A DNA stretch of 64,000 nucleotides, taken from NCBI RefSeq assembly GCF_013409065.1, contig NZ_JACBZP010000001.1:186001-250000 (forward strand). Direction: 5' to 3'. Made by a program: the position numbers and the translations under genes. The notes under the pieces are model-generated. The model did not search any database, had not been told where the DNA came from, and was given only the letters and a program-made list of their open reading frames with translations. This document shows positions 7,445 to 42,675 of the stretch, in pieces (within the stretch, counting starts at the first letter, position 1; each line of letters starts with the position of its first letter). The stretch is from Spelaeicoccus albus (GTDB lineage: Bacteria > Actinomycetota > Actinomycetes > Actinomycetales > Brevibacteriaceae).

Positions 7445-9373
7445 CTAGTCGCGCGTATACCTCTTGATGGCTTCGACGTGTTCGTTCACGGCGTCCGGAT
7501 CATGGTCATCGATCGTGTCGTAGCTCCGTCCCGTCGGCATTGTCCAGCGGATAATTCGCGGCTCGGTCCTCCAATGACCCAGCCATCTGCGGCGGCGTTC
7601 CGCAGCACTTGGGCGCCTGGGGTGGTCCTCCGACTCATGGTCCGGTCGGGTACCGCTTGGCTTGCCGGGTTCGGGCCGGACAACGTTGGCGGCGAACCTT
7701 TTAGCGGTCTTCGCCTGGTGGTGACGTACGCAGGCTGGCTGGAGGTTGTCGGGGGTGGACAGTCCGCCCGACTCTCCGTCTATCCATGGGTCGATATGGT
7801 CGAGCTGACACAAGCTTGCCGCTCTGCTGCAATCCGGCATTGTGCATTCGGGATTGCGCGAACGGATGAATTCTCTTGCGGCAGTGGAGATCTGGTACTT
7901 CCGACGTTCAGCGTCGATCGGGCGAGCGGTAATCGGATCAACGAGCACACGTTCAATCCATGGCGCTTTAGCCGCCAATAGGCGGGCCATGCGGGCCGGG
8001 ATCGGGCCATAACCGGCCATCTCACCGGGCAGCGGTTCACCCATAAGAGTCATGAGCGGCACTGTGACACCGACTCGAACCTGGGCCGGATTCAATGTGA
8101 CCCCGGCCGGCGTAGCGACATCCGCTCCGGCAAGCAGATCAAAGCGACGCTGTTCGATCGAACGCCCTCGGTGCGCAACGCTTACTTCGACGCCGCTCAC
8201 TCCGGGGTTCAGTTCGTCTGCTGCTCGAAGTTGGTCGGCCAGCCCGCCTCCGGCCGCAGTAGCCTCGTCCATCTGCTCGGCCGACGGCGGATCGTTCTGC
8301 TGACTACGAGCGGTCTGGCTGAGACGCTGATAAAGCCCTTGGAGCGTATCGGCGGGCCCGTACGCACTCAGCCAGGCGCCGCCGTACCGATCGGGCTGGA
8401 AAGTGACGTGCCGATGCTCGACGGCTTGCCGGTAAAGCCGATCCGCTTGCCCCGCCTCGTGTCGCATGAGCCACCGGTCAATCCTCTTGCCGAATGCGGG
8501 AAAGCTGATGCGAGAATCCCAACCGGCGACGGTTGCATCGAGTTCTTGGACGAGGTCGGGCGGAAGAAGCCTGCATTTGAACGTCAGGCAGTGCAGTCGG
8601 CGCCGGGAGAGCAGCCCGGATTTGAAGGCTTTCAAACACCTCGGCAGCAGCGCCACCATGATGAGGGACTCAGTCAAACGCGAACATCCTGTCGACACGG
8701 CCACATCCAATTCACATGCGACTTCGTCGCCTGCCCAACGCTCAAGAGCGTCAGCGAATATTTCGCGCGCCGAGAGCCCTTCCGCAGCGGCCGTGGCATT
8801 GTCGGTCGCTTCAGCAGCCGGAGCGGCGACTTTCGAGGTCGCAGCTGACTTGCCGGGACCGCACCCGGCCATATTCCGGTATTTTCCGGACGTCGACCAA
8901 GGCGCCGGATCGTCGTCCTCATTCGGAGGTGGGCTCGGAGCCGGGTGCGGTTTCGGGTCTGTTGGCGCGGCCGTGTCCGGCGGTGAGTCGCCAACCTGAA
9001 ACTGCCCAGTCGAAGTGAAGACCTTGTCCGGATCGATGCGCGCTCGGCCGAAAGCCGCCAAAAGCTCGGCCTGTCGGCCCTCGACGAACGCCATTATCCG
9101 TGCGCATTGACCAGCTAAGCGCAGGCACTCCCCTGCGTCCAGATTCGATGCTCGAACGCCCGCAAGCTCGGCCAGCGCCGGAAGGTCATCCGATAGCCCG
9201 CCATCGTCACCGGAGGAATCGTCACCGGAGGACCTGAACGCGACGTCGGCAATGATTTGCGGAACAGACTTCAATACCGCGGTGAACACGTCGCAATCGC
9301 CTGGTTCGTCGGTCCGGATCGTCACCTTCCGGCGTCCGTCGGATCCTGTTGACCACTCGCTCGTCGTCTTCAT
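7445..9373 (-). CDS. DUF222/13E12-type protein with C-terminal HNH endonuclease domain
   Basis: 642 residues. The N-terminal two thirds look like the DUF222 region common in actinobacterial repeat proteins, interrupted by a Pro/Ala/Ser-rich stretch (about 125-200). The HNH domain is near residue 520-560: CTMPDCSRAASLCQLDHIDP, then DNLQPACVRHHQAK, with zinc-type cysteines and the catalytic His. These genes are multicopy and considered mobile or homing-like in actinobacteria; targets are unknown. Its TAG stop lies in the CTAG target duplicated by the adjacent IS, so the protein end is preserved. Tandem repeats lie just upstream. Confidence 0.88.
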   Translation of the reverse strand: MKTTSEWSTGSDGRRKVTIRTDEPGDCDVFTAVLKSVPQIIADVAFRSSGDDSSGDDGGLSDDLPALAELAGVRASNLDAGECLRLAGQCARIMAFVEGRQAELLAAFGRARIDPDKVFTSTGQFQVGDSPPDTAAPTDPKPHPAPSPPPNEDDDPAPWSTSGKYRNMAGCGPGKSAATSKVAAPAAEATDNATAAAEGLSAREIFADALERWAGDEVACELDVAVSTGCSRLTESLIMVALLPRCLKAFKSGLLSRRRLHCLTFKCRLLPPDLVQELDATVAGWDSRISFPAFGKRIDRWLMRHEAGQADRLYRQAVEHRHVTFQPDRYGGAWLSAYGPADTLQGLYQRLSQTARSQQNDPPSAEQMDEATAAGGGLADQLRAADELNPGVSGVEVSVAHRGRSIEQRRFDLLAGADVATPAGVTLNPAQVRVGVTVPLMTLMGEPLPGEMAGYGPIPARMARLLAAKAPWIERVLVDPITARPIDAERRKYQISTAAREFIRSRNPECTMPDCSRAASLCQLDHIDPWIDGESGGLSTPDNLQPACVRHHQAKTAKRFAANVVRPEPGKPSGTRPDHESEDHPRRPSAAERRRRWLGHWRTEPRIIRWTMPTGRSYDTIDDHDPDAVNEHVEAIKRYTRD

Positions 9374-31077: not shown

Positions 31078-32366
31078 TTCGAGCCTCCCGGCAGGGTTGA
31101 CAGCATCACGCAGTCCAGCTCGTCGCCGGCCTCGACCCGCACGGTGTCGGCGGGCACGGGCATCAGCGCATTCGCCCGCGCCAGGCTGGTCAGCAGGTGC
31201 GAACCGTGGCCGCCCAGCATGCTGACCGTCGGAACGCCGTCCGGCTCGGCCCGCACGACGGCCCGCACGATCTGAGTCTTGCCGCGGACCGAATCGAATC
31301 CTTCCGCAACTCGTGCCCGTATGACTGCGCGGTCGAGGTCGGAACGGCCCGTCATGGCCAGCACTGCCGGCCGGATGAACAGCTCGAACGACACGAACGT
31401 GGACACCGGATTACCCGGCAGACACAGGACCGGCACGGCGCGGCCGGCCGCATCGATGGTGCCGGCGCCTTGCGGTCCGCCCGGCTGCATGGCAATGTGC
31501 CCGAACCACATGCCGTCGCCGCGCCGGAGCACATCCTTGACCACGTCGTAGGCTCCGGCGGACACCCCGCCGCTCGTCACGATGAGGTCGGCGCGGGACG
31601 CCGCCTGGCCCAGGATGCGGCGCAACTCGTCGGCATCGTCGCTGACGGCCGCGACGAGTTCGGCGTCGATGCCGATCTCGGCGAACGCCGCCACGAGCAT
31701 CTGGCCGTTGGATTCGAAGATCTGGCCGGGCTCGAGCCGGCTGCCCGGGGCCACGAGCTCGGTTCCGGTGGCCATCACCACCACGCGGGGTCGCCGGAAT
31801 ACCGGCACCCTGTCGTAGCCCAGCGCGGCAAGCATGCCGATGGCGCGCGCGTCCAGCACGCTTCCGCGCTCGAGCACGGTTTCGTCGGCCCGCACATCGG
31901 CTCCGACCGAGCGTATGTAGAGTCCCGGCGTGACAGTGGTGCCGTCCGGCACCGTGGCCCGGACGTCGTCCGGCGCCGACGACGATCCGCGCGGCGCATC
32001 CGTCCACTCGACCGGGACCACCGCGTCGGCGCCGTCCGGGATCGGTGCCCCCGTCATGATTCGAATTGCCGTTCCGGGCTCGACGGCGGCATCCGGGGCG
32101 GAACCGGCGGCAATGTCGCCCACTACCGTCAACCGGCTGCCCGGAGCCCCCACGCCGGTCACGTCGGCGACGCGCACGGCGAACCCGTCCATTTGCGAGT
32201 TGTCGAATATCGGCAGGTCGCGTCCGGCCGCAATGGTCTCCGCAACCGCCGACCCGAGCGCTCCGGTCAACTGCATCAGTTCGGGCGCGAGCGCCGGGAG
32301 CAGGGCCCCGACACGCTCGCGGTGGTCGGCCACCGACGGCGGTCCGACCCGGTTGTCATCAGTCAT
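31074..32366 (-). CDS. moeA: Molybdopterin molybdenumtransferase MoeA / gephyrin-like Glp
   Basis: 430 residues. Motifs: [15 protein letters not shown] near 57, [15 protein letters not shown] near 105, [20 protein letters not shown] near 250-270 and [15 protein letters not shown] near 310. It inserts molybdate into the cofactor; in corynebacteria a syntenic homologue (Glp) also binds FtsZ and GlpR. Here moaC and mogA sit in the same coupled operon as glpR, so both roles are possible. ATG 32366 overlaps the galU stop. Confidence 0.92.
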
Positions 32367-33277
32367 GGGAGACTCGCGCCGAAATCTTTCAGCCATGCCG
32401 AGAACTCGGGACCGAGGTCCTCGCGTCCTGCAGCGAGTTGCACGACAGCTTTCAAGTAGTCGACCTTATCGCCGGTGTCGTAACGCCGGCCTCGGAAGAC
32501 GACGCCGTACACGCCGTGCGAGTCGGGGTCGCCGGCAAGCGCCTGCAAGGCATCGGTCAGCTGAATCTCGTTGCCCCTGCCGAACCCGGTGTGCCGCAGC
32601 ACTTCGAAGATCTCGGGGGCCAGCACGTATCGGCCGATGATCGCCAGATTGCTCGGAGCCTTGTCGACGTCCGGCTTTTCAACGAGTGCGTTGACCCGCA
32701 CGACGTCCTGCTCGTCGGTCTCGGTCACGGCGGCGCACCCGTACAAGTCGATGTGTTCCGGGTCGACCTCCATCAGTCCGATCACCGAACCGCCGGTGCG
32801 CTGCTGCACGTCGATCATCGTCGTCAGCAGCGGATCGCGCTCGTCGATCAGGTCGTCGCCGAGCAGCACCGCGAACGGCTCGCGGCCGACGTGACCGGCC
32901 GCCTTCAAGACGGCGTGCCCGAGCCCCAGCGGATCTCCCTGGCGGACAAAGTGGATGTCGGCGAGTTCCGATGTGTGCTTCACCAAATCGAGCTTCGTCT
33001 CGTCGCCCTTTGCCGCAAGCGCCGCTTCGAGACCGTCGACGCGGTCGAAATGGTCTTCCACGGCGCGCTTGCTGCGTCCGGTGATCATGAGGACGTCGAC
33101 AAGTCCGGCTGCAACCGCTTCTTCGACGACGTATTGGATCGCCGGTTTGTCCACGACCGGAAGCATCTCTTTCGGTGTCGCCTTCGTCACCGGTAGGAAT
33201 CGGGTGCCAAGTCCCGCGACGGGAATGACGGCCTTACGGACTTTCTGCCCGTCCAAGTTCTCGATATTTTCGGTCAT
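32363..33277 (-). CDS. galU: UTP-glucose-1-phosphate uridylyltransferase
   Basis: 304 residues from ATG 33277. The nucleotide-binding signature GLGTRFLPVTKATPKEMLP (near 18-36) is followed by VDKPAIQYVVEEA, LLGDDLIDE (near 118) and VNALVEKPD (near 175). Makes UDP-glucose for envelope sugars. The frame extends to 33388 but the added residues are unrelated to the family. First gene of the operon, divergent from the folate gene. Confidence 0.94.
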   Translation of the reverse strand: MTENIENLDGQKVRKAVIPVAGLGTRFLPVTKATPKEMLPVVDKPAIQYVVEEAVAAGLVDVLMITGRSKRAVEDHFDRVDGLEAALAAKGDETKLDLVKHTSELADIHFVRQGDPLGLGHAVLKAAGHVGREPFAVLLGDDLIDERDPLLTTMIDVQQRTGGSVIGLMEVDPEHIDLYGCAAVTETDEQDVVRVNALVEKPDVDKAPSNLAIIGRYVLAPEIFEVLRHTGFGRGNEIQLTDALQALAGDPDSHGVYGVVFRGRRYDTGDKVDYLKAVVQLAAGREDLGPEFSAWLKDFGASLP

Positions 33278-33340
33278 ACCGGCAAGATTATCGTGTACGC
33301 CGAATTTTGCAGCCGGATGGCAGAAAATTACCGGTACGCT

Positions 33341-33994
33341 ATGCGCGTGAGCACAGAAAAGTCGCTGCTTCGGGCGGAAATCAGGCAAGCCCGACGCGAG
33401 AAGTCAGCTGCCGAGAGGCTCCACGCCAAGCAGCGGTTTTCGGTGCCGGGGTTTGAAATCGTGATGCGACAGCTCGACCTCATGGCACCGGGCGGCCCGC
33501 ATTCAGTCGCCGGCTATTCGCCCTTGCTCGGCGAGCCCGACGTGCGCGGCCTGCTGAATCGGCTGATTGCGGTCGGCGTCGAGGTGTACCTGCCGGTGTC
33601 GACCCCGCAGCGCCCGCTCGAGTGGGCGGCGGACGACGGCCGGTATCGGCCCAGCAGCGTCGGCGGCGGCCCCGAGCCGGTCGGGCCGGTGATCACGTCG
33701 GCCGAACTCATCGATCGTGCCGGAGTCGTCATAGTTCCGGCGTTGGCGGTCGATCGGCGCGGTGCCCGCTTGGGTCAGGGCGGAGGCTTCTACGACCGCA
33801 GCTTCACCGAACTCCGCACTGTCACGGGCTCCGAAACGTGTACGTTCTGGGCGGCCGTGTATGACGACGAGGTGTTGCCGGCCCGTGCCGTCCCCACGCT
33901 GCCGCACGATCTCCGTGTCGATGCCGCACTCACGCCGTCCGGCCTTGACGTCTTCCGCAAAACGCGGCGCGGCGTCGGGAACGCGTCGTCATGA
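33341..33994 (+). CDS. 5-formyltetrahydrofolate cyclo-ligase
   Basis: 217 residues. Opening KSLLRAEIRQARR, then VAGYSPLLGEPDVRGLL and VYLPVS, and the conserved phosphate/folate loop GARLGQGGGFYDRSF (near 142-156). Converts 5-formyl-THF to 5,10-methenyl-THF using ATP. Divergent from galU, as usual in actinobacteria. The last 13 codons and stop are supplied by an intergenic palindromic repeat, giving an extra tail FRKTRRGVGNASS. An alternative GTG start lies 6 bp downstream. Confidence 0.9.
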   Translation: MRVSTEKSLLRAEIRQARREKSAAERLHAKQRFSVPGFEIVMRQLDLMAPGGPHSVAGYSPLLGEPDVRGLLNRLIAVGVEVYLPVSTPQRPLEWAADDGRYRPSSVGGGPEPVGPVITSAELIDRAGVVIVPALAVDRRGARLGQGGGFYDRSFTELRTVTGSETCTFWAAVYDDEVLPARAVPTLPHDLRVDAALTPSGLDVFRKTRRGVGNASS

Positions 33995-34049: not shown

Positions 34050-36740
34050 TCAGCTGCCGTCCGGTTTCAGCGTCAACGTGTCGGTGGCGGCATCGTCGAC
34101 CGCCGGCTTCGTGAACGGCCAGGAATACGTCGTGCCTTTCAACCACCGCGGCAATTGATCGAGGTAGTGGGCACTGAACGGATGGCCCGAGTTGCCGGTG
34201 AGATTGACCCAGGTCGACCGATTCAGGTTGTCGAAATCGAGCACCATGCGCATCGAGGGGCCGGAGGTGACCGTGTAGTTGCCGCTTGCCGCATCCCAAC
34301 TCGTCGCATCGACGACGGCTGTCGTGCCGCCGACGTCGTGGGATCCTCCGTTGAATGCCCACCGCACGATGCCGGGCGCCGATTCGCCGCCCAACGGGCT
34401 TTCCTTCAGCTCAAGCTTGTGCAGTCTTCCCCATTGCCAGTCGTCCGGGTCCTTGCCGAGGCTCGCGGTGAGCTCCTTGCGCGCATCGGAAAGCGCATGT
34501 TCGAGCACTTCGTCGCGGGTTTCGACGACGTTCGGCGTCAGCCGGTCGTCCCACCACGAGTTATCCGGATGCTTCAACAGCCGTGCGACGGCACCCATCC
34601 ACCGGTCCGAGCCGTTCGGCGTGGCCGGTTCGGGCACTTCTCCCCCGAATGCATGCTTCAACACGCTCGCCCAGACCGCATTGAAATAAGCGGCAGCCGC
34701 CGAATCGGGCGACTCGGTGTAATCCCAGTTCCGCAGCAGGTCCACCGCCTCGCCGGTGAACTTATCGGTCTCGACCTTCAACAGATGTTTCACCAGCGTG
34801 CGGGCGAACTCGTTCGACGTCGACATTTGGATGGCACTCATATCCGCCCGCGTGAGCTTCTTGTGGTGCCCGATAGCGTTCTGGAGCTTGTCCCGAATGG
34901 CCTGCGACCGGTAACCGTAGTCGAAGTCCGAGCCGAGGTAGTTCGGATAGCCGGCACCGGCGACCTTTTGATTAGCAGTGGCGATGAACCCTTGTTTGGG
35001 GTCGAGCGAACTGGGCAGCTGGTCGAACGGGATGTATCCCTGCCAGTCGAAATCACTGTCCCATCCGGGAACCGGCCAGGTTCCGTTCGACGGAACCGGC
35101 CCGCCGACCACCGTGTTCCTGATCGGCACCTTGCCGGGGGTCTGGTACCCGATATGGCCGGCGGTGTCGGCGTACACGATATTTTGCGCCGGCACGGCGA
35201 ACGAGCGGGCCGCACTGCGCATATCCGAAAAATCTTTTGCAGTGTCCATGGCGAAAATAGCGTCGGCCGTTCGGCCCGGCTGCAGGGCAGTCCACGCCAA
35301 AGACACGGCGAATTGCGGCTGACGTGCCGGGACGTCGTGCGCGTGCCGCGGCGTCTCGGCGTCCGTCTTCTTCGGCCTTGCCAACCGAGTGTCGGCGAGC
35401 ACGTCCGAAACGATCGGGCCGTGGTCGGTTGACCGGACGTTGATCGTCACGGTGTTCGCGTCGGCCACCTTGATGTGCTCGGTACGTTGTTTCAACGGCA
35501 CGTTCTTGCCGTCCAAGCGATAGCTCGACCCGTCGATCTTCTCCAAGTAGAAGTCGGTGACGTCGGCGCCCATATTGGTGAACCCCCAGCCGATATTCCG
35601 GTTGTGGCCGATGAAGACGCCGGGCATGCCGGAAAACCCGAATCCGGAGACGTCGAACGGGCAGTCCTTGTTCACGGTGGTGCAGTGCAGTCCGGCTTGA
35701 TACCAGATTCCCGGTACCGTGAGCGCCAGATGCGGATCGTTGGCCAGCAGCGGTTTGCCGGACGCCGTGTATTTGCCGGACACGACCCACGAGTTCGAGC
35801 CGATGCCGTCGCCGCGGCCCAGGAGCTGGGGTACGGCGTTCAATGCGGCGCCGGCCGTCTTCAAAGCCGCGCCGGCCGTGCCCGCAGCTTCGGTCGTATC
35901 GTGGCCGCGTGGCGTGTCGGTGTGCGCCGGCGACCCTTCGAGGGCGGTCGCCCACTCCTTTGCTTCCTTCTTGCCGATCCGAATCTTCGACGCGACCCGT
36001 GATCCCGGCGGCAGGGTCGACTTGTTCATCTGACCGCGCGTCACGATCGGCCGGTGCGACTTCGGTGTGTCCGGGAACAATTCGTCGACCTTTGCCACAC
36101 TGGGCACGACAGTGTGGATCTGGGCCCGCTCGAGTTCGGAGTCGTAATTGGTCTTCAAATCCCACGCCATGGCCTTGAGCCACGCCAGCGAATCGACCGG
36201 CGTCCAGCTCTCGATATCCTCGAGATGCACCGTGCTGCCCAAAATGGTGTACGCAAGTCCCAGGTCGGACGGCGATTTGTCGGCCAAGTAGGCGTTGACG
36301 CCGTCCGCGTACGCCTTCAGATACGCGCGCGTCGACTTCGACAGCAGCGGCAGTTCCTGCTTGGCAACGCGGCGCCACCCCAGCGTACGAATGACCTTGT
36401 CGGCGGTCAGCGCCTCCGAGTTCGTCCCGACAAGTTCGGACAGACGGCCGGCCGTGACGTGACGGCGATAGTCCATTTCGAAAAATCGGTCTTGAGCGTG
36501 CACGTAGCCCTGCGCGTAGAACAAGTCGTGCGAGGAGTCCGCATAGATATTCGGGACGCCGGTGTCACCGCGTTTGATGACGACGTCGTGGCCGAGGCCC
36601 GGCACGGATTCGGTGCCCGAATAGTCCGGCAACGAGTGCCGCACGACCGTGACGGCCGCGATGGCGATCACCAGGGCCAACGCTATGACGGCGGCAATCA
36701 CAATCGTGCTGATGCGCGTCAATTTCTTCCCACCCACCAC
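34050..36740 (-). CDS. Penicillin acylase family (Ntn-hydrolase) protein, membrane-anchored
   Basis: About 896 residues. One transmembrane anchor (about 10-32) leads to an extracellular enzyme. The alpha-chain region has GVPNIYADSSHDLFYAQGYV and AQDRFFEMDYRR. The autocleavage site with catalytic Ser is GIGSNSWVVSG (GSNSW, near 340), giving a beta chain. Later ANDPHLALTVPGIWYQAGLH, GHNRNIGWGFTN and TDHGPIV are typical. Hydrolyses amide bonds such as acyl-homoserine lactones or beta-lactam side chains; substrate unknown. The frame opens at TTG 36788; a GTG near 36740 just before the anchor is preferred because the longer form would enter the CIRCE/promoter region. Confidence 0.88.
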   Translation of the reverse strand: MVGGKKLTRISTIVIAAVIALALVIAIAAVTVVRHSLPDYSGTESVPGLGHDVVIKRGDTGVPNIYADSSHDLFYAQGYVHAQDRFFEMDYRRHVTAGRLSELVGTNSEALTADKVIRTLGWRRVAKQELPLLSKSTRAYLKAYADGVNAYLADKSPSDLGLAYTILGSTVHLEDIESWTPVDSLAWLKAMAWDLKTNYDSELERAQIHTVVPSVAKVDELFPDTPKSHRPIVTRGQMNKSTLPPGSRVASKIRIGKKEAKEWATALEGSPAHTDTPRGHDTTEAAGTAGAALKTAGAALNAVPQLLGRGDGIGSNSWVVSGKYTASGKPLLANDPHLALTVPGIWYQAGLHCTTVNKDCPFDVSGFGFSGMPGVFIGHNRNIGWGFTNMGADVTDFYLEKIDGSSYRLDGKNVPLKQRTEHIKVADANTVTINVRSTDHGPIVSDVLADTRLARPKKTDAETPRHAHDVPARQPQFAVSLAWTALQPGRTADAIFAMDTAKDFSDMRSAARSFAVPAQNIVYADTAGHIGYQTPGKVPIRNTVVGGPVPSNGTWPVPGWDSDFDWQGYIPFDQLPSSLDPKQGFIATANQKVAGAGYPNYLGSDFDYGYRSQAIRDKLQNAIGHHKKLTRADMSAIQMSTSNEFARTLVKHLLKVETDKFTGEAVDLLRNWDYTESPDSAAAAYFNAVWASVLKHAFGGEVPEPATPNGSDRWMGAVARLLKHPDNSWWDDRLTPNVVETRDEVLEHALSDARKELTASLGKDPDDWQWGRLHKLELKESPLGGESAPGIVRWAFNGGSHDVGGTTAVVDATSWDAASGNYTVTSGPSMRMVLDFDNLNRSTWVNLTGNSGHPFSAHYLDQLPRWLKGTTYSWPFTKPAVDDAATDTLTLKPDGS

Positions 36741-36759
36741 GATGCCTAAAACTAGCACG

Positions 36760-36815
36760 TTCGCATGCGCGGACACTGCGGCGTACAATTAGCACTCGGG
36801 ACCCGTGAGTGCCAA
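36760..36815 (+). promoter_or_regulatory. CIRCE operator (HrcA site) and promoter upstream of fmdB
   Basis: TTAGCACTC (36789-36797), exactly 9 bp, then GAGTGCCAA (36807-36815): the CIRCE consensus with one mismatch. A -10 hexamer TACAAT (36784-36789) abuts it and TTCGCA (36760-36765) is an 18-bp-spaced -35. The site covers the transcription start, the expected position for HrcA repression. Confidence 0.8.
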
Positions 36816-36833
36816 ATTCTTGAGGAGGACAAC

Positions 36834-37229
36834 GTGCCAAAGTACGCATATGCGTGCACCGAGTGCGGTCACAGTTTTGATATCCACCAGTCGTTCAGCG
36901 ACGAGACGCTGACAATCTGCCCGGAGTGCGAGGGCAAGCTTCGCAAGGTGTTCGGCGCCGTCGGCGTCGTGTTCAAGGGCTCGGGGTTCTACCGCACCGA
37001 TTCACGTTCGTCCTCGTCCAACGGGACGTCGGGCGGCTCTTCCAAATCGGACGGCAACGGCTCCTCGAACGGTACCGCCGACAAGTCCTCCGACTCGTCG
37101 AGCGACAAGTCCTCCGGCTCGTCGAACAAGTCGTCCACGTCGGACAGTTCCTCCGGCGGCTCATCCAACGGAAGCTCGCCCGCCGCCAAGGCCGACTCCG
37201 GCAAGAAGGCGGCAGCGTCGGCGTCCTGA
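36834..37229 (+). CDS. fmdB: FmdB-family zinc-ribbon protein with serine-rich tail
   Basis: 131 residues from GTG 36834 after GAGGAG. The zinc ribbon (1-42) reads PKYAYACTECGHSF then LTICPECEGKLRKVFG, with two CxxC pairs. From about residue 57 the rest is almost only Ser, Gly, Lys, Asp and Asn, ending AAASAS, and is probably disordered. FmdB proteins are regulators or small zinc proteins of unclear role. The CIRCE operator upstream links it to heat or misfolding stress. Confidence 0.88.
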   Translation: MPKYAYACTECGHSFDIHQSFSDETLTICPECEGKLRKVFGAVGVVFKGSGFYRTDSRSSSSNGTSGGSSKSDGNGSSNGTADKSSDSSSDKSSGSSNKSSTSDSSSGGSSNGSSPAAKADSGKKAAASAS

Positions 37230-37339: not shown

Positions 37340-37942
37340 ATGGCTCACGAATTGCTATTCCGATTGCGCCGGTACCGGCGGGCGGCCGCCGCCGTGGCTT
37401 TGGGGCTGGCCGCTATGCTTGCCGCGTCTCGTTTGATCCCGGTGGGCGACACCGAAGTCGTCGTCACGCATCGCGACGTCACGGCGGGGCAGCCGTTGAC
37501 GGCGCGGGACGTGACAGTGGCGCATTACCCGAAATCACTTGTCCCCGCGGACGGTTTCACGGACCCGGACGACGTCGTCGGCGCCTTGCCTCGGACCGAT
37601 TTCACCACCGGCACTCCCGTCACCGCGGCAATGCTGCGTCCCGCGGCGTCAGTGCCGTCGCGTGCCTCCAGCGTCGCTTTCCCGTTGCACGTGGCCGATG
37701 CCGAAGCCGTGAAACTCCTGCACCCCGGCGATCACATCATGGTGTTTCGACGGGCTCCCGACACGGGGGCGGCCGAAGTGGCGGCGGACGACGTGGTCGT
37801 GTTGAGTATCCGTCACTCCCACGCGGCTGCCCTGTCCGGAAGCGAAACCGGCGCGCTCATCACCGTTGATGTCGGAAAACACACTGCTCGCCTGCTCGCC
37901 GGCACCGATTCCGCATATACGTTCGCGTTACTGGGCGGGTGA
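37340..37942 (+). CDS. SAF-domain membrane-anchored protein (CpaB-like)
   Basis: 200 residues. Basic N-terminus and one helix (about 17-34) form a signal anchor. The SAF domain (about 45-110) shows VVVTHRDVTAGQPLTARDVT and FTTGTPVTAAMLRP, followed by a CpaB/RcpC-like part (VKLLHPGDHIMVF). No pilus genes are adjacent. Common downstream of fmdB in actinobacteria with unknown function. The 110-bp gap before it shows nothing. Confidence 0.82.
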   Translation: MAHELLFRLRRYRRAAAAVALGLAAMLAASRLIPVGDTEVVVTHRDVTAGQPLTARDVTVAHYPKSLVPADGFTDPDDVVGALPRTDFTTGTPVTAAMLRPAASVPSRASSVAFPLHVADAEAVKLLHPGDHIMVFRRAPDTGAAEVAADDVVVLSIRHSHAAALSGSETGALITVDVGKHTARLLAGTDSAYTFALLGG

Positions 37943-37976: not shown

Positions 37977-40900
37977 CTACTGCCAGTGCGGCGGCCGCTC
38001 GGACAAGAGTCGCTCATCGTTGCTGTCCGTGCCGTCGCCCCATTCACGGTCGTCGTCGGACGGCGCGCGGCGCGGCACTATCGGGTCGGGCGCTCCACGC
38101 CGATTCTGATCGCGTGCTAATTTCGGCTGGGTCTGCTTGGAATCCGTCGTTTCGCCGGTCGTGGTGTTCTCCTTTGAGGGTTCGGGGGCGTCGTTTTCGT
38201 GCCGTTCGCCCGCCGGTCTTGCGGCGGATTTCGCCCGCAGGCCGGCTCGGTAGCGTTTCACGGCCGTGACGAGCGCGGTGTCCGTGATTCGGCTCCGGCG
38301 CTTTTGAGCCAGCGCGGTGCGAAGCAATTCGACGAGATCGGCATCGCTTCTCTCGACGCCGTCGGACCGGATCCATTCGAGCATGGCGTCGAGGTCGTCG
38401 TCCGAATAAGCGGTCATCGGCAGGCCCGGGGTCAGTCTCGGTCGCTCGCCCTTGCGTCGGAATACTTCGGCGGCGGCGCGCGCAGCGCCAAGCACGGCTT
38501 GCGCCGACAAATCCTCGACGGCTTCCTGCCACGCGTCAAAGATCCGGTCCGCCTCGGCCTGCGGGTCGGCAAAGACGTCGGTCGTCCATACCCGGACGTA
38601 TCGCCATCCGCGCCGGGCCAGGTCCTCGGGACGCATGCGTTCACGCTGCCTGATGCTGCGGATCTGGCGATATCGCACGCCGTCGCTTTCAACGGCGACC
38701 ACCATGCCGGTATCCGATTCCAGTCCCGCCACGGCGAGGTCGAGTTCACCGGCGTAATTCACGCGTGCGTAGAGGCCGCGCCGCAGTAGTCGATCGGCCA
38801 GATCCGACAAGAGCGGGTCGGGTTCGCCGACGGGCCCATCGGCCTGTTCACCGTCGTCCCGCCGGTCGTCCTCCGCATCGATTTCGGCTCCCGCGGCCGA
38901 TGGTTCCGCCGTGTCCGGTTCGTCGTCCGCGAGACTCTCACCGGCGACGTCCGCCAGCAGCAGCGGCAGGAGCGCCGCGCCGTGAGCCAGCTTGTTGTTC
39001 TCGAAGTCGTGCGCGGTAAAGCAGGACACGACAGTCGTGCGGCTGCGCGCTCGAGTGATCGCGGCAGCCAGATACCGCTCGCCGCCCGGGCTCGACAGCT
39101 TCCCCATCCGGTGCAGGGTGCGGCCGTGCGGCGTCCGGCCGAAGCCGAGCGAGAAAATTATCGCGTCGCGGGTCAACCCGTGCAAGTGCTCGCAATCGAG
39201 CACCGTGAACGGTTCGGACACGCGGTCGGAGAAGAACGACCCGACGTAGGGATGTTCAAGCAGTGTGCGCTGCAGCAGATCATTCACTCGTTCGGCGTGC
39301 ACGGCGGACAGTGTGACGACTGCAAGGGATTCACGCGGATGGTTGCGGGCGTGTTCGAGCACCAGCTGGACGACGCGCCGCACCTCGGCATCGACGCTTT
39401 CGACTTGGTCGGTAGCCGGGTCGGGCGCGCCGGTGCCGTCGGCGACGTGCGCGAATTTCAGGCCCGACTCGTCGCCGGGCCAAGCCGCCGGCATCGATCG
39501 GATAGTCGACTCATAAAAATGCCGGTTGGCGAATTGCACAAGTTTGTCCGGACCGTTGCGGTAGCTGTTGTGCAGCCGACGGGTCGGAATGAGACCGTCG
39601 AGTTCGGAAAACAGCGACCCGGCCACCGGTTCGGCTCCCCCGCTCGGCGCAAAGCGGCGATCGGCCCCGACAGTGAACGTCGAGGGTCCGAGCAGTCGAT
39701 CGTCGCCGAGTACGACGACCTGTCGGGCACGCGAGATGGCCGGGAGGGCTTCGGCGACGGACAATCGGCCGGCGTCGCCAATGATGACGGTGTCGAAGAA
39801 CTCGCCCGGCGGCAGTTCCGCCGGCACGTGCAGCGGGCTCATCAGCCATACCGGCGCGAGCGCGCCGGTGACGTCCGGTGCCCGGCGCACCAGGGAGTCG
39901 AGTTCGGCAGTCTTCGAGCGCAGTGATTCACGCACGATTCCGGCCTGATCGGGATGCGCGGCGATCGCGCCCTTCCAGGCGCCGGCCAGGCTCCACCGGA
40001 CGCGATCCGAGCCGAGATCGAGATGACGACGGTCCGCTATCCGGAACTCCCCGGCGATACGGCGCATATGGTCGCCGTCGTGGCCGCCGACCGCGGGATC
40101 GGCACCGGCCATCTCCTGCAGCACCGATGCCCACCAGGCGAGTTCGAACTCGTTGCCGACGACGGCGTGCTCCACGCGTCGCGAGCGCAAGTCGTCGACA
40201 AGATCCGCCAGACCCGCGGTGCGCAGCTTGCCGTCCAGTTCGGTGCGCTCGGGCAGGTCGGTGAGAGCGTCCTCGTCGTCACGGAGCGCTTCGAGACGTG
40301 CAGCCAGCTCGTCGATACGCATCTCCGACAAGTTGCCGCCGTCCGGCGTCGGCTCGAGGACCGGTTCCAGGCGGTCGAGCGCCGCGCTCAGCTTGTCGTA
40401 TCGTTCGCGCAGGTCGAGAAGGCCGCGCGGGACCTTCGGAGTGCCGTCGTGCGCGGACAAGCGCAGCCAGTCGGCGCGCTGCGACCGCGCTTCGACAAGA
40501 GCCTTGTGCAAATTGTCGACCTGGACGCCGGGTCGGACGAATTCGCGTGCCAGCTTCTTCAGGCGCCGGCGCGTCATCGACCCCATCGGGGCTCCGATTT
40601 CGCTGCGGTAGCCGGACGTCCCGGTGGCCGCGATCATGTCGCCGAGCGGCTGGTCGAACACGTCCGGGGTCAGCTTGTCGAGCGTTTCGCGAATGCCGAG
40701 CAGCACGGCAATCTGTTTTCCCCACGCGTCGGTCGTGACGGCCGGGCGAAGATCGGCGCGGTCGGCCAACGTCGTCATATCGGTACGCAGCGAAGGCAAT
40801 AATTCATCGGCGACTTCCCGCGCAGTGGTTTGCGCGGCTGCCGCATCGGCGTCCGAGGGCAGGTACGCGCCGAACCAGGCAGTGTCCTCGACATCGAGGG

Positions 40901-42551
40901 TGAAGGCGCCGAGTTCGGACAACCGGTCGAGATCGCGCAGGATCCGGTGACGTTTGCCATCGGCCATCGTGAGCATGTCGGAATCCAGCCGGACCCGGGT
41001 CGACGGGGCCGGCTTGGCGGACGTCAGCTGCGCCAAATGCTCCATGGCCTCATAAGCCGACACTCCCCACGGATCGCGCCGGCGGTGCAGTGCGTGGCTG
41101 TGCGCATCGAGCTCGTGCCGATACTGGCGCAGGGTTTCGATCACTTCGTCGCGATCGGGCCGGGTGGCTTGTTCGTCGGCGCTGATCATGGCGATGAGGC
41201 TGCGTTGCCTGTCGCGGCGCGATCCGCGTGCGTCGAGGACGAAATCGCTCAATCCGGCGTCGCGGCTCCGGGCAATGAAATCGTCAAGGGAGTCGGCGTT
41301 TTCCGAAACGTACAACACGCGTTTGCCCTCGTGGGCCAGTGCGGCAGTCATATTGACGCTGGTCTGCGTTGCGCCCGTGCCGGGCGGCGTATCGAGGCGC
41401 AGGTGGGCCCCCGACAGCACGATGTCGATGGCTGCCTGCTGGTCGCCGTCCGCATCGACGACGAGGAGTTCGGACTCCGGGTCGCGGTCCCTGAGCGGCA
41501 CCGCCTCGTTCAAGTCCGCCTCGGCGATATCGGCCCGGGCAACATCGTCGCGCAGCTGCGCGACGGTGTCGGGCTCACCGGACAGCCCCGCGATCACCGG
41601 GTGCGTGCGATCGATGGTCTCGCCTTCGAACGGGCCGCGCACGTCGGCGAACGTTGACACGATGAGCCGCTGGACGACGGTGAAGCCGGGCAGCCGGCGC
41701 ACGAGTTTCCGCAACCGGTCGAGCACCGGAGCCGGGTCGAAGCTCCCCGGGCGGTTCGCCAGGGCGTTCCATTCATCCACGGGAATGTGGACATCGTGCA
41801 CGGTGGCCAGGAACCGGACAAGGGCCGGGTTCACGACGGCTTCATCGGCGAGCGTGACTTCGATGTCCTTCAGCCGATGCCCACGCGGGTGCAGCATGAT
41901 GGGGCGCAACAACACCGGTGCGCAGATGTCGTGCGTCATACCGCCCTGGGCGCCGTTCCAATTCGCCAACCCGATTGCCAGGTATGCGGCCGAGAGGCCG
42001 CGCTCGGCCCGGAGCTGCTCGGTTTTCGCGCGGAGGGTCTTGGCGCGGCGGCGAGCGTCCGAAAGCATCTCATGGTCGCGGATCAGGCTGGAGAGTCTGG
42101 TAGCGCGGCCGGCCAGCAGCTGGGCGACGCCCGATGGATGAGCGCCGGTGAAGTCGATTGATCCATCGCGCGAATCACGGTAGTTCAGCAGCGTGTCGCG
42201 GCCGCCGATCGTGGCCATGTGCTCGACCCACTCATCGAGTTTTGCCGCGACCGGGTCGACCGGGTCGGAAGGGGCGTCAGCGCCGGCCAAGTCGCCGGCC
42301 GGCAAGTCCTCTCGGGCCGGAACGTTCTCGATCGATTCGTCCCGGGCCGAATCATCGTGGGTCGATTCATCGTCCGCTGCGGATTCCGGCGCAGCGACCG
42401 GCGAATCGGCGTCGACCCGGCCACCGGCTGCGTAGTCACGCTGTTGCGGGTCGTTGTGCTCGTCCGGGCCGGGCGGCGTTGATTCCGTCCGGTCCTGCGA
42501 GTTGGATGCATCAGACACATCTTCGAGGTTATCGAAGCTGGAGGCATTCAT
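37977..42551 (-). CDS. Giant SF1-helicase-like protein with C-terminal Vsr/MTES_1575-type nuclease domain
   Basis: About 1524 residues from ATG 42551. An acidic low-complexity head (1-100) is followed by a DUF4011-like region (about 105-230), then an interrupted helicase core. The Walker A-like loop is DTPPGTGATQTSV (near 387), lacking the usual GKT lysine. The Walker B-like strand is TVIIGDAGRLSVAEALP (near 919), lacking the DE pair. Helicase C-terminal motifs are RLHNSYRNGPDKLV and GERYLAAAITRARSRTTVV. A nuclease-like fold near 1255-1345 has NYAGELDLAVAG and AVESDGVRYR, then RRGWRYVRVWTTD. The tail is hydrophilic. Role in repair or defence is inferred; ATPase activity is doubtful. Confidence 0.8.
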   Translation of the reverse strand: MNASSFDNLEDVSDASNSQDRTESTPPGPDEHNDPQQRDYAAGGRVDADSPVAAPESAADDESTHDDSARDESIENVPAREDLPAGDLAGADAPSDPVDPVAAKLDEWVEHMATIGGRDTLLNYRDSRDGSIDFTGAHPSGVAQLLAGRATRLSSLIRDHEMLSDARRRAKTLRAKTEQLRAERGLSAAYLAIGLANWNGAQGGMTHDICAPVLLRPIMLHPRGHRLKDIEVTLADEAVVNPALVRFLATVHDVHIPVDEWNALANRPGSFDPAPVLDRLRKLVRRLPGFTVVQRLIVSTFADVRGPFEGETIDRTHPVIAGLSGEPDTVAQLRDDVARADIAEADLNEAVPLRDRDPESELLVVDADGDQQAAIDIVLSGAHLRLDTPPGTGATQTSVNMTAALAHEGKRVLYVSENADSLDDFIARSRDAGLSDFVLDARGSRRDRQRSLIAMISADEQATRPDRDEVIETLRQYRHELDAHSHALHRRRDPWGVSAYEAMEHLAQLTSAKPAPSTRVRLDSDMLTMADGKRHRILRDLDRLSELGAFTLDVEDTAWFGAYLPSDADAAAAQTTAREVADELLPSLRTDMTTLADRADLRPAVTTDAWGKQIAVLLGIRETLDKLTPDVFDQPLGDMIAATGTSGYRSEIGAPMGSMTRRRLKKLAREFVRPGVQVDNLHKALVEARSQRADWLRLSAHDGTPKVPRGLLDLRERYDKLSAALDRLEPVLEPTPDGGNLSEMRIDELAARLEALRDDEDALTDLPERTELDGKLRTAGLADLVDDLRSRRVEHAVVGNEFELAWWASVLQEMAGADPAVGGHDGDHMRRIAGEFRIADRRHLDLGSDRVRWSLAGAWKGAIAAHPDQAGIVRESLRSKTAELDSLVRRAPDVTGALAPVWLMSPLHVPAELPPGEFFDTVIIGDAGRLSVAEALPAISRARQVVVLGDDRLLGPSTFTVGADRRFAPSGGAEPVAGSLFSELDGLIPTRRLHNSYRNGPDKLVQFANRHFYESTIRSMPAAWPGDESGLKFAHVADGTGAPDPATDQVESVDAEVRRVVQLVLEHARNHPRESLAVVTLSAVHAERVNDLLQRTLLEHPYVGSFFSDRVSEPFTVLDCEHLHGLTRDAIIFSLGFGRTPHGRTLHRMGKLSSPGGERYLAAAITRARSRTTVVSCFTAHDFENNKLAHGAALLPLLLADVAGESLADDEPDTAEPSAAGAEIDAEDDRRDDGEQADGPVGEPDPLLSDLADRLLRRGLYARVNYAGELDLAVAGLESDTGMVVAVESDGVRYRQIRSIRQRERMRPEDLARRGWRYVRVWTTDVFADPQAEADRIFDAWQEAVEDLSAQAVLGAARAAAEVFRRKGERPRLTPGLPMTAYSDDDLDAMLEWIRSDGVERSDADLVELLRTALAQKRRSRITDTALVTAVKRYRAGLRAKSAARPAGERHENDAPEPSKENTTTGETTDSKQTQPKLARDQNRRGAPDPIVPRRAPSDDDREWGDGTDSNDERLLSERPPHWQ

Positions 42552-42675
42552 CACTTGCACCACGCACGCGGAAGCCGTATTTCGTGAACGAACCGGCAAA
42601 TGAACGCCCGCGATGTGCGCCCGAACACGCCGCTGACCTACACTTGTCAATTGTCTGCCGCTTGTTCCGGCGCAT

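What the first reader, a model, noticed from the sequence alone, without database searches (positions are those of the whole stretch)
36760..36834. CIRCE/HrcA operator controls fmdB rather than a chaperone gene
Seen: TTAGCACTC-N9-GAGTGCCAA immediately after a TACAAT -10 and before the fmdB Shine-Dalgarno. Known: CIRCE is bound by HrcA and normally precedes groE or dnaK. Inference: this small zinc-ribbon protein with a disordered serine tail belongs to the heat-shock regulon and may act in proteostasis.
Basis: partly seen in the sequence, partly recalled or inferred. Interest (0 to 1): 0.62.

Follow-up and report, generated by a model that had tools for sequence, protein, structure and literature searches.

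The report
Heat-shock switch before a chaperone gene
The DNA switch that normally turns on the GroEL chaperones under heat also sits in front of a small zinc-ribbon protein gene here; the matching protein in the tuberculosis bacterium is already known to be a chaperone under the same switch, so this is a well-conserved but essentially known arrangement.

Summary
A CIRCE operator (17 of 18 consensus bases, N9 spacer) lies at 36789-36815, overlapping a TACAAT -10 and ending 18 nt before the GTG start of an FmdB-type zinc-ribbon gene (36834-37229); none is expected by chance. The genome has one hrcA. Its five CIRCE sites within 3 mismatches are two before groES-groEL, two before a second groEL, and this one; a weaker copy precedes hrcA-dnaJ. 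That is the HrcA regulon published for Mycobacterium tuberculosis, whose fourth target, rv0991c (Ruc), is a zinc-ribbon protein shown to be a redox-activated chaperone. The window protein has its four cysteines at the same positions and a long Ser-rich tail; no Hsp33 was found in the genome. Of 52 fmdB genes examined in the order, the window's included, 29 have CIRCE (15 or more of 18 positions); the other 23 score 10 or less. It is a new member of a known kind. Two side observations that I did not find reported: a SigR/SigH-like promoter running into CIRCE in 49 of 101 named relatives but not here, and two CIRCE-linked relatives without any cysteine.

The parts
36760..36765 (+). -35-like hexamer TTCGCA (4 of 6)
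   Evidence: consensus match only
36784..36789 (+). -10 hexamer TACAAT (5 of 6), last T shared with CIRCE
36789..36815 (+). CIRCE operator TTAGCACTC-N9-GAGTGCCAA, predicted HrcA site
36822..36829 (+). Shine-Dalgarno-like GAGGAGGA
   Evidence: read directly
36834..37229 (+). fmdB/ruc: 131-aa zinc-ribbon protein, Cys 8, 11, 29, 32, with Ser-rich hydrophilic tail (residues 52-131)
33293..33994 (+). 5-formyltetrahydrofolate cyclo-ligase, conserved upstream neighbour (context, not part of the switch)
32363..33388 (-). galU, conserved neighbour (context)
34050..36788 (-). penicillin amidase family protein, divergent neighbour (context; longest ORF, real start probably further in)
37340..37942 (+). 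SAF-domain / CpaB-like protein downstream (context)

Best explanation
This is the HrcA-repressed heat-shock promoter of the local orthologue of Ruc (M. tuberculosis Rv0991c). Shown here by sequence: the operator, the hrcA gene, the same operators at groES-groEL, a second groEL and (weaker) hrcA-dnaJ, and conservation of the operator at fmdB in many actinomycetes. Inferred: at normal temperature HrcA binds CIRCE across the -10 and start site and blocks a housekeeping-type promoter; heat or misfolded protein inactivates HrcA and the gene is induced together with GroES/GroEL. Inferred from the M. tuberculosis experiments: the four cysteines hold zinc when reduced, oxidation turns the protein into a holdase, and its disordered tail helps hold unfolded proteins for the DnaK system. 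No Hsp33 was found in this genome, and this protein may fill that role.
For: Operator 17 of 18 with 0 expected. Five sites in the genome at three loci: two before Cpn10-Cpn60 genes, two before a second Cpn60 gene, one before fmdB (families); a core GCACTC-N9-GAGTGC also precedes hrcA, followed by a dnaJ gene. hrcA E 6e-57, one copy; one Zn_ribbon_8 gene; no Hsp33, while the same search rings in 8 of 14 control genomes. Of 52 order-level fmdB genes, the window's included, 29 have CIRCE at 15 or more of 18 and 23 score at most 10; for each of the 29, 0 of 100 shuffles of its upstream DNA reached the score. In the class 84 of 394 genomes, the window's included, have the exact core 8-38 nt before an MPxxY start, against 1 of 394 in the control columns as I read them; of the 30 loci fetched from the 84, 28 (the window's included) are four-cysteine FmdB. 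The regulon published for M. tuberculosis is the same four operons, and Ruc is HrcA-repressed, heat-induced and a chaperone. The cysteines mutated there are 8, 11, 29, 32 by primer name, the same positions as here. Matches to GalU and 5-FTHF cyclo-ligase lie near CIRCE-fmdB in 36 and 46 of 101 named loci, lower bounds.
Against: No binding or expression data for this organism. The operator is missing at fmdB in 23 of 52 order genomes, 22 of which have hrcA, among them the four other genomes of the window's own family; in families f49 and f50 it is present at 9 of 18 and 0 of 30 loci read. So the control is dispensable. The SigH-type element that helps induce ruc in M. tuberculosis is absent here. 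Chaperone activity is carried over from one orthologue, and 2 CIRCE-linked family members lack all cysteines.
Confidence: 0.86

Rival explanations
1. The operator serves the divergent penicillin amidase gene, or both genes, and fmdB is a bystander.
For: The amidase gene is divergent and its longest ORF begins at 36788, at the edge of the operator. In L024, L121 and L127 the amidase match also ends only 137-251 nt upstream of fmdB.
Against: CIRCE stays with fmdB when the amidase is elsewhere: in Streptomyces loci with a match it ends about 1.8-4.4 kb upstream of fmdB, and 70 of 101 loci show no amidase match in the stretch held. The operator overlaps the + strand -10, on the fmdB side.
Confidence: 0.06
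2. FmdB is a transcription regulator (as its database name, from the formamidase operon, suggests) that happens to be HrcA-controlled.
For: Zinc ribbons occur in nucleic-acid-binding proteins, and the family bears a regulator-like name (both recalled, from no call).
Against: The orthologue Ruc is a chaperone in vitro; the long Ser-rich tail has 2 of 80 residues in VILMFWYC. The search of solved structures was uninformative: best E 0.024, to a zinc-finger protein by its name.
Confidence: 0.05
3. The operator is a decaying relic without effect.
For: It is missing in the four other genomes of the same family.
Against: 17 of 18 consensus positions, the joint best match in the genome. Scores in the order are 15 or more, or 10 or less, with none between.
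Confidence: 0.03

Closest known systems
Ruc (Rv0991c) of Mycobacterium tuberculosis, HrcA/SigH-controlled redox chaperone (PMC7448276)
   Same: Zinc-ribbon N-terminus with cysteines at 8, 11, 29, 32; hydrophilic tail; HrcA control; HrcA regulon otherwise groES-groEL1, groEL2, hrcA-dnaJ2
   Different: No SigH-like GGAAY-N17-19-GTT running into the operator here; a sigma-70-like promoter instead. The tail of about 80 residues exceeds the approximately 7-61 that the paper gives for homologues. The gene downstream is SAF/CpaB-like; it was not compared with rv0990c.
CIRCE/HrcA control of groESL
   Same: Same operator, N9 spacer, at the promoter
   Different: A single site before a zinc-ribbon gene; the two groE loci here have two sites each
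Hsp33 (redox-activated holdase)
   Same: Ruc is proposed to play the same part in lineages where Hsp33 is rare (PMC7448276, passages)
   Different: Dissimilar sequence according to that paper; not found in this genome

Membership tests
HrcA/CIRCE regulon | Operator TTAGCACTC-N9-GAGTGCTAA at the promoter | tested here: met
   17 of 18, 0 expected; overlaps the -10
HrcA/CIRCE regulon | hrcA gene in the genome | tested here: met
   E 6e-57
HrcA/CIRCE regulon | Same operator at groES/groEL in the same genome | tested here: met
HrcA/CIRCE regulon | HrcA binding and heat induction | not testable with these tools
   needs bench work
Ruc (FmdB-type) family | N-terminal zinc ribbon with four cysteines at conserved positions | tested here: met
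   positions compared with the mutant primers named
Ruc (FmdB-type) family | Hydrophilic C-terminal tail without predicted structure | tested here: met
   33 Ser and 2 of VILMFWYC in 80 residues; disorder inferred from composition, no structure was predicted
Ruc (FmdB-type) family | Zinc binding and oxidation-activated chaperone activity | not testable with these tools
   known to me for the M. tuberculosis protein only
M. tuberculosis-type double control of ruc (an attribute of that species, not a defining feature of the family) | SigH-type promoter overlapping the HrcA site | tested here: not met
   no GGAAY-N17-19-GTT at the operator in the window; 49 of 101 named relatives have one

The most novel reading that the evidence does not exclude
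The conserved job of the Ruc family in the HrcA regulon is not the zinc/redox switch but the VGxxFKGSGFYxTDSR segment plus disordered tail, acting as a heat-induced holdase or co-chaperone. In a few lineages the redox switch was lost (cysteine-less relatives under CIRCE in a Bifidobacterium and a Solirubrobacteraceae assembly); in others it was reinforced by a SigR/SigH-like promoter fused to the operator. I lowered this from 0.15 to 0.12 on rechecking, because all 48 further relatives read keep four cysteines.
Probability: 0.12. Interest if true: 0.5.

Novelty: new member of a known kind. Interest (0 to 1): 0.22.

Why it matters
It suggests that the HrcA control of a Ruc-type chaperone, worked out in M. 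tuberculosis, is widespread in actinomycetes and occurs also in a Dehalococcoidia and an Eremiobacterota assembly. Harmless species could then be used to study it. The two promoter forms (HrcA with a SigR/SigH-like element, HrcA with a housekeeping-like one) and the cysteine-less relatives are natural variants that could separate heat control from redox control.

Tried and rejected
Counting relatives with an exact CIRCE core and a short gap understates the link: in the scored order survey 17 of the 29 operators lie farther from the start than that pattern allowed. Of 53 order genomes with a TIGR02605 match I used the best match of each; one (G414, L211) was dropped because my start rule found none. 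Of the 120, classed 94 as four-cysteine FmdB, 7 as FmdB-like and 19 as other; by eye one of the 19 (L098) is a further FmdB variant and L050 looks like one cut by the locus end. The 101 loci were chosen by a slightly different motif (L105 out, L098 in, judged from the outputs). Of the 30 loci fetched, L134 and L154 are not FmdB; the other 54 of its 84 hits were not fetched. The neighbour counts (5-FTHF cyclo-ligase 46, GalU 36, amidase 31, SAF 6, of 101) are lower bounds, because many stretches end too soon.

I looked for more cysteine-less relatives with the Bifidobacterium protein: family f49, 18 of 41 genomes match; family f50, 48 of 61 match. Searches read one strand only and missed loci given on the other strand. 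The two-strand repeat read 18 of 18 loci of f49 and 30 of the 48 matches of f50 (those with loci): all 48 loci read have four cysteines in the first 60 residues, and CIRCE at 15 or more of 18 stands at 9 of 18 and 0 of 30. I found no handle for the Bifidobacterium family, so the cysteine-less case rests on two assemblies. A study of stress genes in bifidobacteria (PMC9004370, passages) lists HrcA sites in B. breve at groEL, groES and hrcA only and no such gene; 'fmdb' and 'zinc' do not occur in its main text.

Longer proteins go with CIRCE in the order survey (median 121 against 95 residues, 29 against 23 genes, rank test p 0.0006), but relatedness is not corrected for, so I draw nothing from it. 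Searches FmdB+HrcA and FmdB+CIRCE gave 0 papers; the tuberculosis work uses the names Rv0991c and Ruc. Searches showed 20 of 24, 20 of 3,922, 20 of 390 and 15 of 100 papers; in these listings (titles and starts of abstracts) I saw nothing on CIRCE before this gene in other actinomycetes. With the passages named in this report, that is the whole basis for saying I did not find it reported. No structure was predicted.

Full report
What is there. The window holds a CIRCE operator, TTAGCACTC-GGGACCCGT-GAGTGCCAA, at 36789-36815 on the + strand: one mismatch, none expected. TACAAT at 36784-36789 shares its last base with the operator, and TTCGCA lies before it with an 18-nt spacer. GAGGAGGA at 36822-36829 precedes a GTG start at 36834. 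The gene, 36834-37229, encodes 131 residues with a zinc ribbon of the FmdB family. Its last 80 residues hold 33 serines and 2 residues of the set VILMFWYC.

The regulon in this genome. The window lies in a 4.03-Mb single-contig genome. CIRCE with up to 3 mismatches occurs at five places, the reversed control at none. In the surrounding DNA two sites precede a Cpn10-Cpn60 pair (groES-groEL), two precede a second Cpn60 gene, and one precedes fmdB; the chaperonin families were confirmed. A sixth, weaker site with the core GCACTC-N9-GAGTGC intact lies just before hrcA, which is followed by a dnaJ gene. There is one hrcA, one Zn_ribbon_8 gene and no Hsp33 match.

What is known. In M. tuberculosis HrcA directly regulates groEL2, groES-groEL1, rv0991c-rv0990c and hrcA-dnaJ2 (PMC8557902, passages). 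Rv0991c, named Ruc, is low at 37 degrees mainly because of HrcA, rises at 45 degrees, has a zinc ribbon and a disordered tail, prevents aggregation when oxidised and promotes the Hsp70 system; the authors note that Hsp33 is rare in several lineages where Ruc is common (PMC7448276; abstract and outline, passages, not the whole text). SigH also drives ruc, and rv0991c is in the table of SigH-dependent genes of PMC4803200 (passages). The regulon of the window's genome is thus the same set. The cysteines mutated in that work, 8, 11, 29 and 32, are at the same positions in the window protein. The name FmdB hides the link: FmdB with HrcA or with CIRCE finds no paper in the library.

Conservation. 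In an order-level sample 53 of 59 genomes have the FmdB family and 57 of 59 have HrcA. Upstream of 52 fmdB genes, the window's included, 29 carry an operator at 15 or more of 18 positions and 23 score at most 10. Absence is not explained by loss of the repressor: 22 of the 23 have hrcA. The split largely follows families, but the four other genomes of the window's own family lack the operator. In a class-level sample 84 of 394 genomes have the exact core 8-38 nt before an MPxxY start, against 1 of 394 in the control columns as I read them. In two further families the operator stands at 9 of 18 and 0 of 30 loci read. Among named genomes the four-cysteine hits include Streptomyces, Kitasatospora, Micromonospora, Amycolatopsis, Lentzea, Cellulomonas and Isoptericola, and reach a Dehalococcoidia and an Eremiobacterota assembly. 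GalU and 5-FTHF cyclo-ligase matches lie near 36 and 46 of 101 CIRCE-fmdB loci, as in the window. From memory, the same two genes neighbour rv0991c in M. tuberculosis; I did not test that.

Promoter forms. In 49 of 101 named CIRCE-fmdB loci a SigR/SigH-like GGAAY-N17-19-GTT runs into the first bases of CIRCE, against 0.29 on average and 3 at most in 200 rounds with the upstream DNA shuffled. A consensus GGAAYR-N17-GTT for SigH is given in PMC4803200 (passages). These loci are mostly Streptomyces, so they are not independent, but Amycolatopsis and Prauserella loci also have it. This matches the overlap reported for M. tuberculosis. The window lacks it and has a housekeeping-like -10 at that place, so oxidative induction at the promoter is not expected here; redox control would be left to the protein. 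That is inference.

How it most likely works. HrcA sits across the -10 and the start site and blocks transcription; under heat it is released and fmdB is made together with GroES/GroEL. The protein then acts as a holdase, activated by oxidation. The first part is inferred from the operator, the hrcA gene and the M. tuberculosis data; the second from the M. tuberculosis protein alone. Against a simple redox story, two CIRCE-linked FmdB-like proteins have no cysteine, in a Bifidobacterium (L027) and a Solirubrobacteraceae (L040) assembly; in L027 a GalU match ends 58 nt upstream of fmdB, so the place is the same. Such cases look rare: 94 of 120 pattern loci are four-cysteine FmdB, and all 48 further loci read keep four.

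Verdict.

Noticed in passing
L027 (pattern match 7534-7583, -), L040 (4825-4893, +): FmdB-like proteins with no cysteine at all, still directly under a CIRCE operator, in a Bifidobacterium and a Solirubrobacteraceae assembly. None in 48 further relatives of two other families.
   Followed up: partly
49 of 101 named loci among L010-L129, e.g. L014, L019: A SigR/SigH-like promoter whose GTT runs into the first bases of CIRCE before fmdB, in Streptomyces and some Pseudonocardiaceae; absent in the window.
   Followed up: partly
L118, L062: CIRCE directly before a four-cysteine FmdB gene in an Eremiobacterota and a Dehalococcoidia assembly, outside Actinomycetota.
   Followed up: no
L007 2493-3776 and 3875-5047, - strand (G000 C1:175492-176775 and 176874-178046, outside the window): Two neighbouring, partly identical genes beside groES, each with three DUF348 stretches, a G5 domain and a transglycosylase-like domain; they look like a tandem duplication of a cell-wall (Rpf-like, recalled) protein.
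   Followed up: partly
window 37977-42650, - strand: A 1557-residue open frame with DUF4011, a weak AAA_11 match below cut-off and a C-terminal MTES_1575 REase domain, next to the SAF-domain gene.
   Followed up: partly
G221, G407, G421, G434 (loci L209, L174, L175, L166): The four other genomes of the window's family have fmdB and hrcA but no CIRCE before fmdB, so the control was perhaps lost there.
   Followed up: no
G344 (locus L172): The one order genome that has fmdB but no HrcA match also lacks CIRCE before fmdB, while the three others of its family have it.
   Followed up: no
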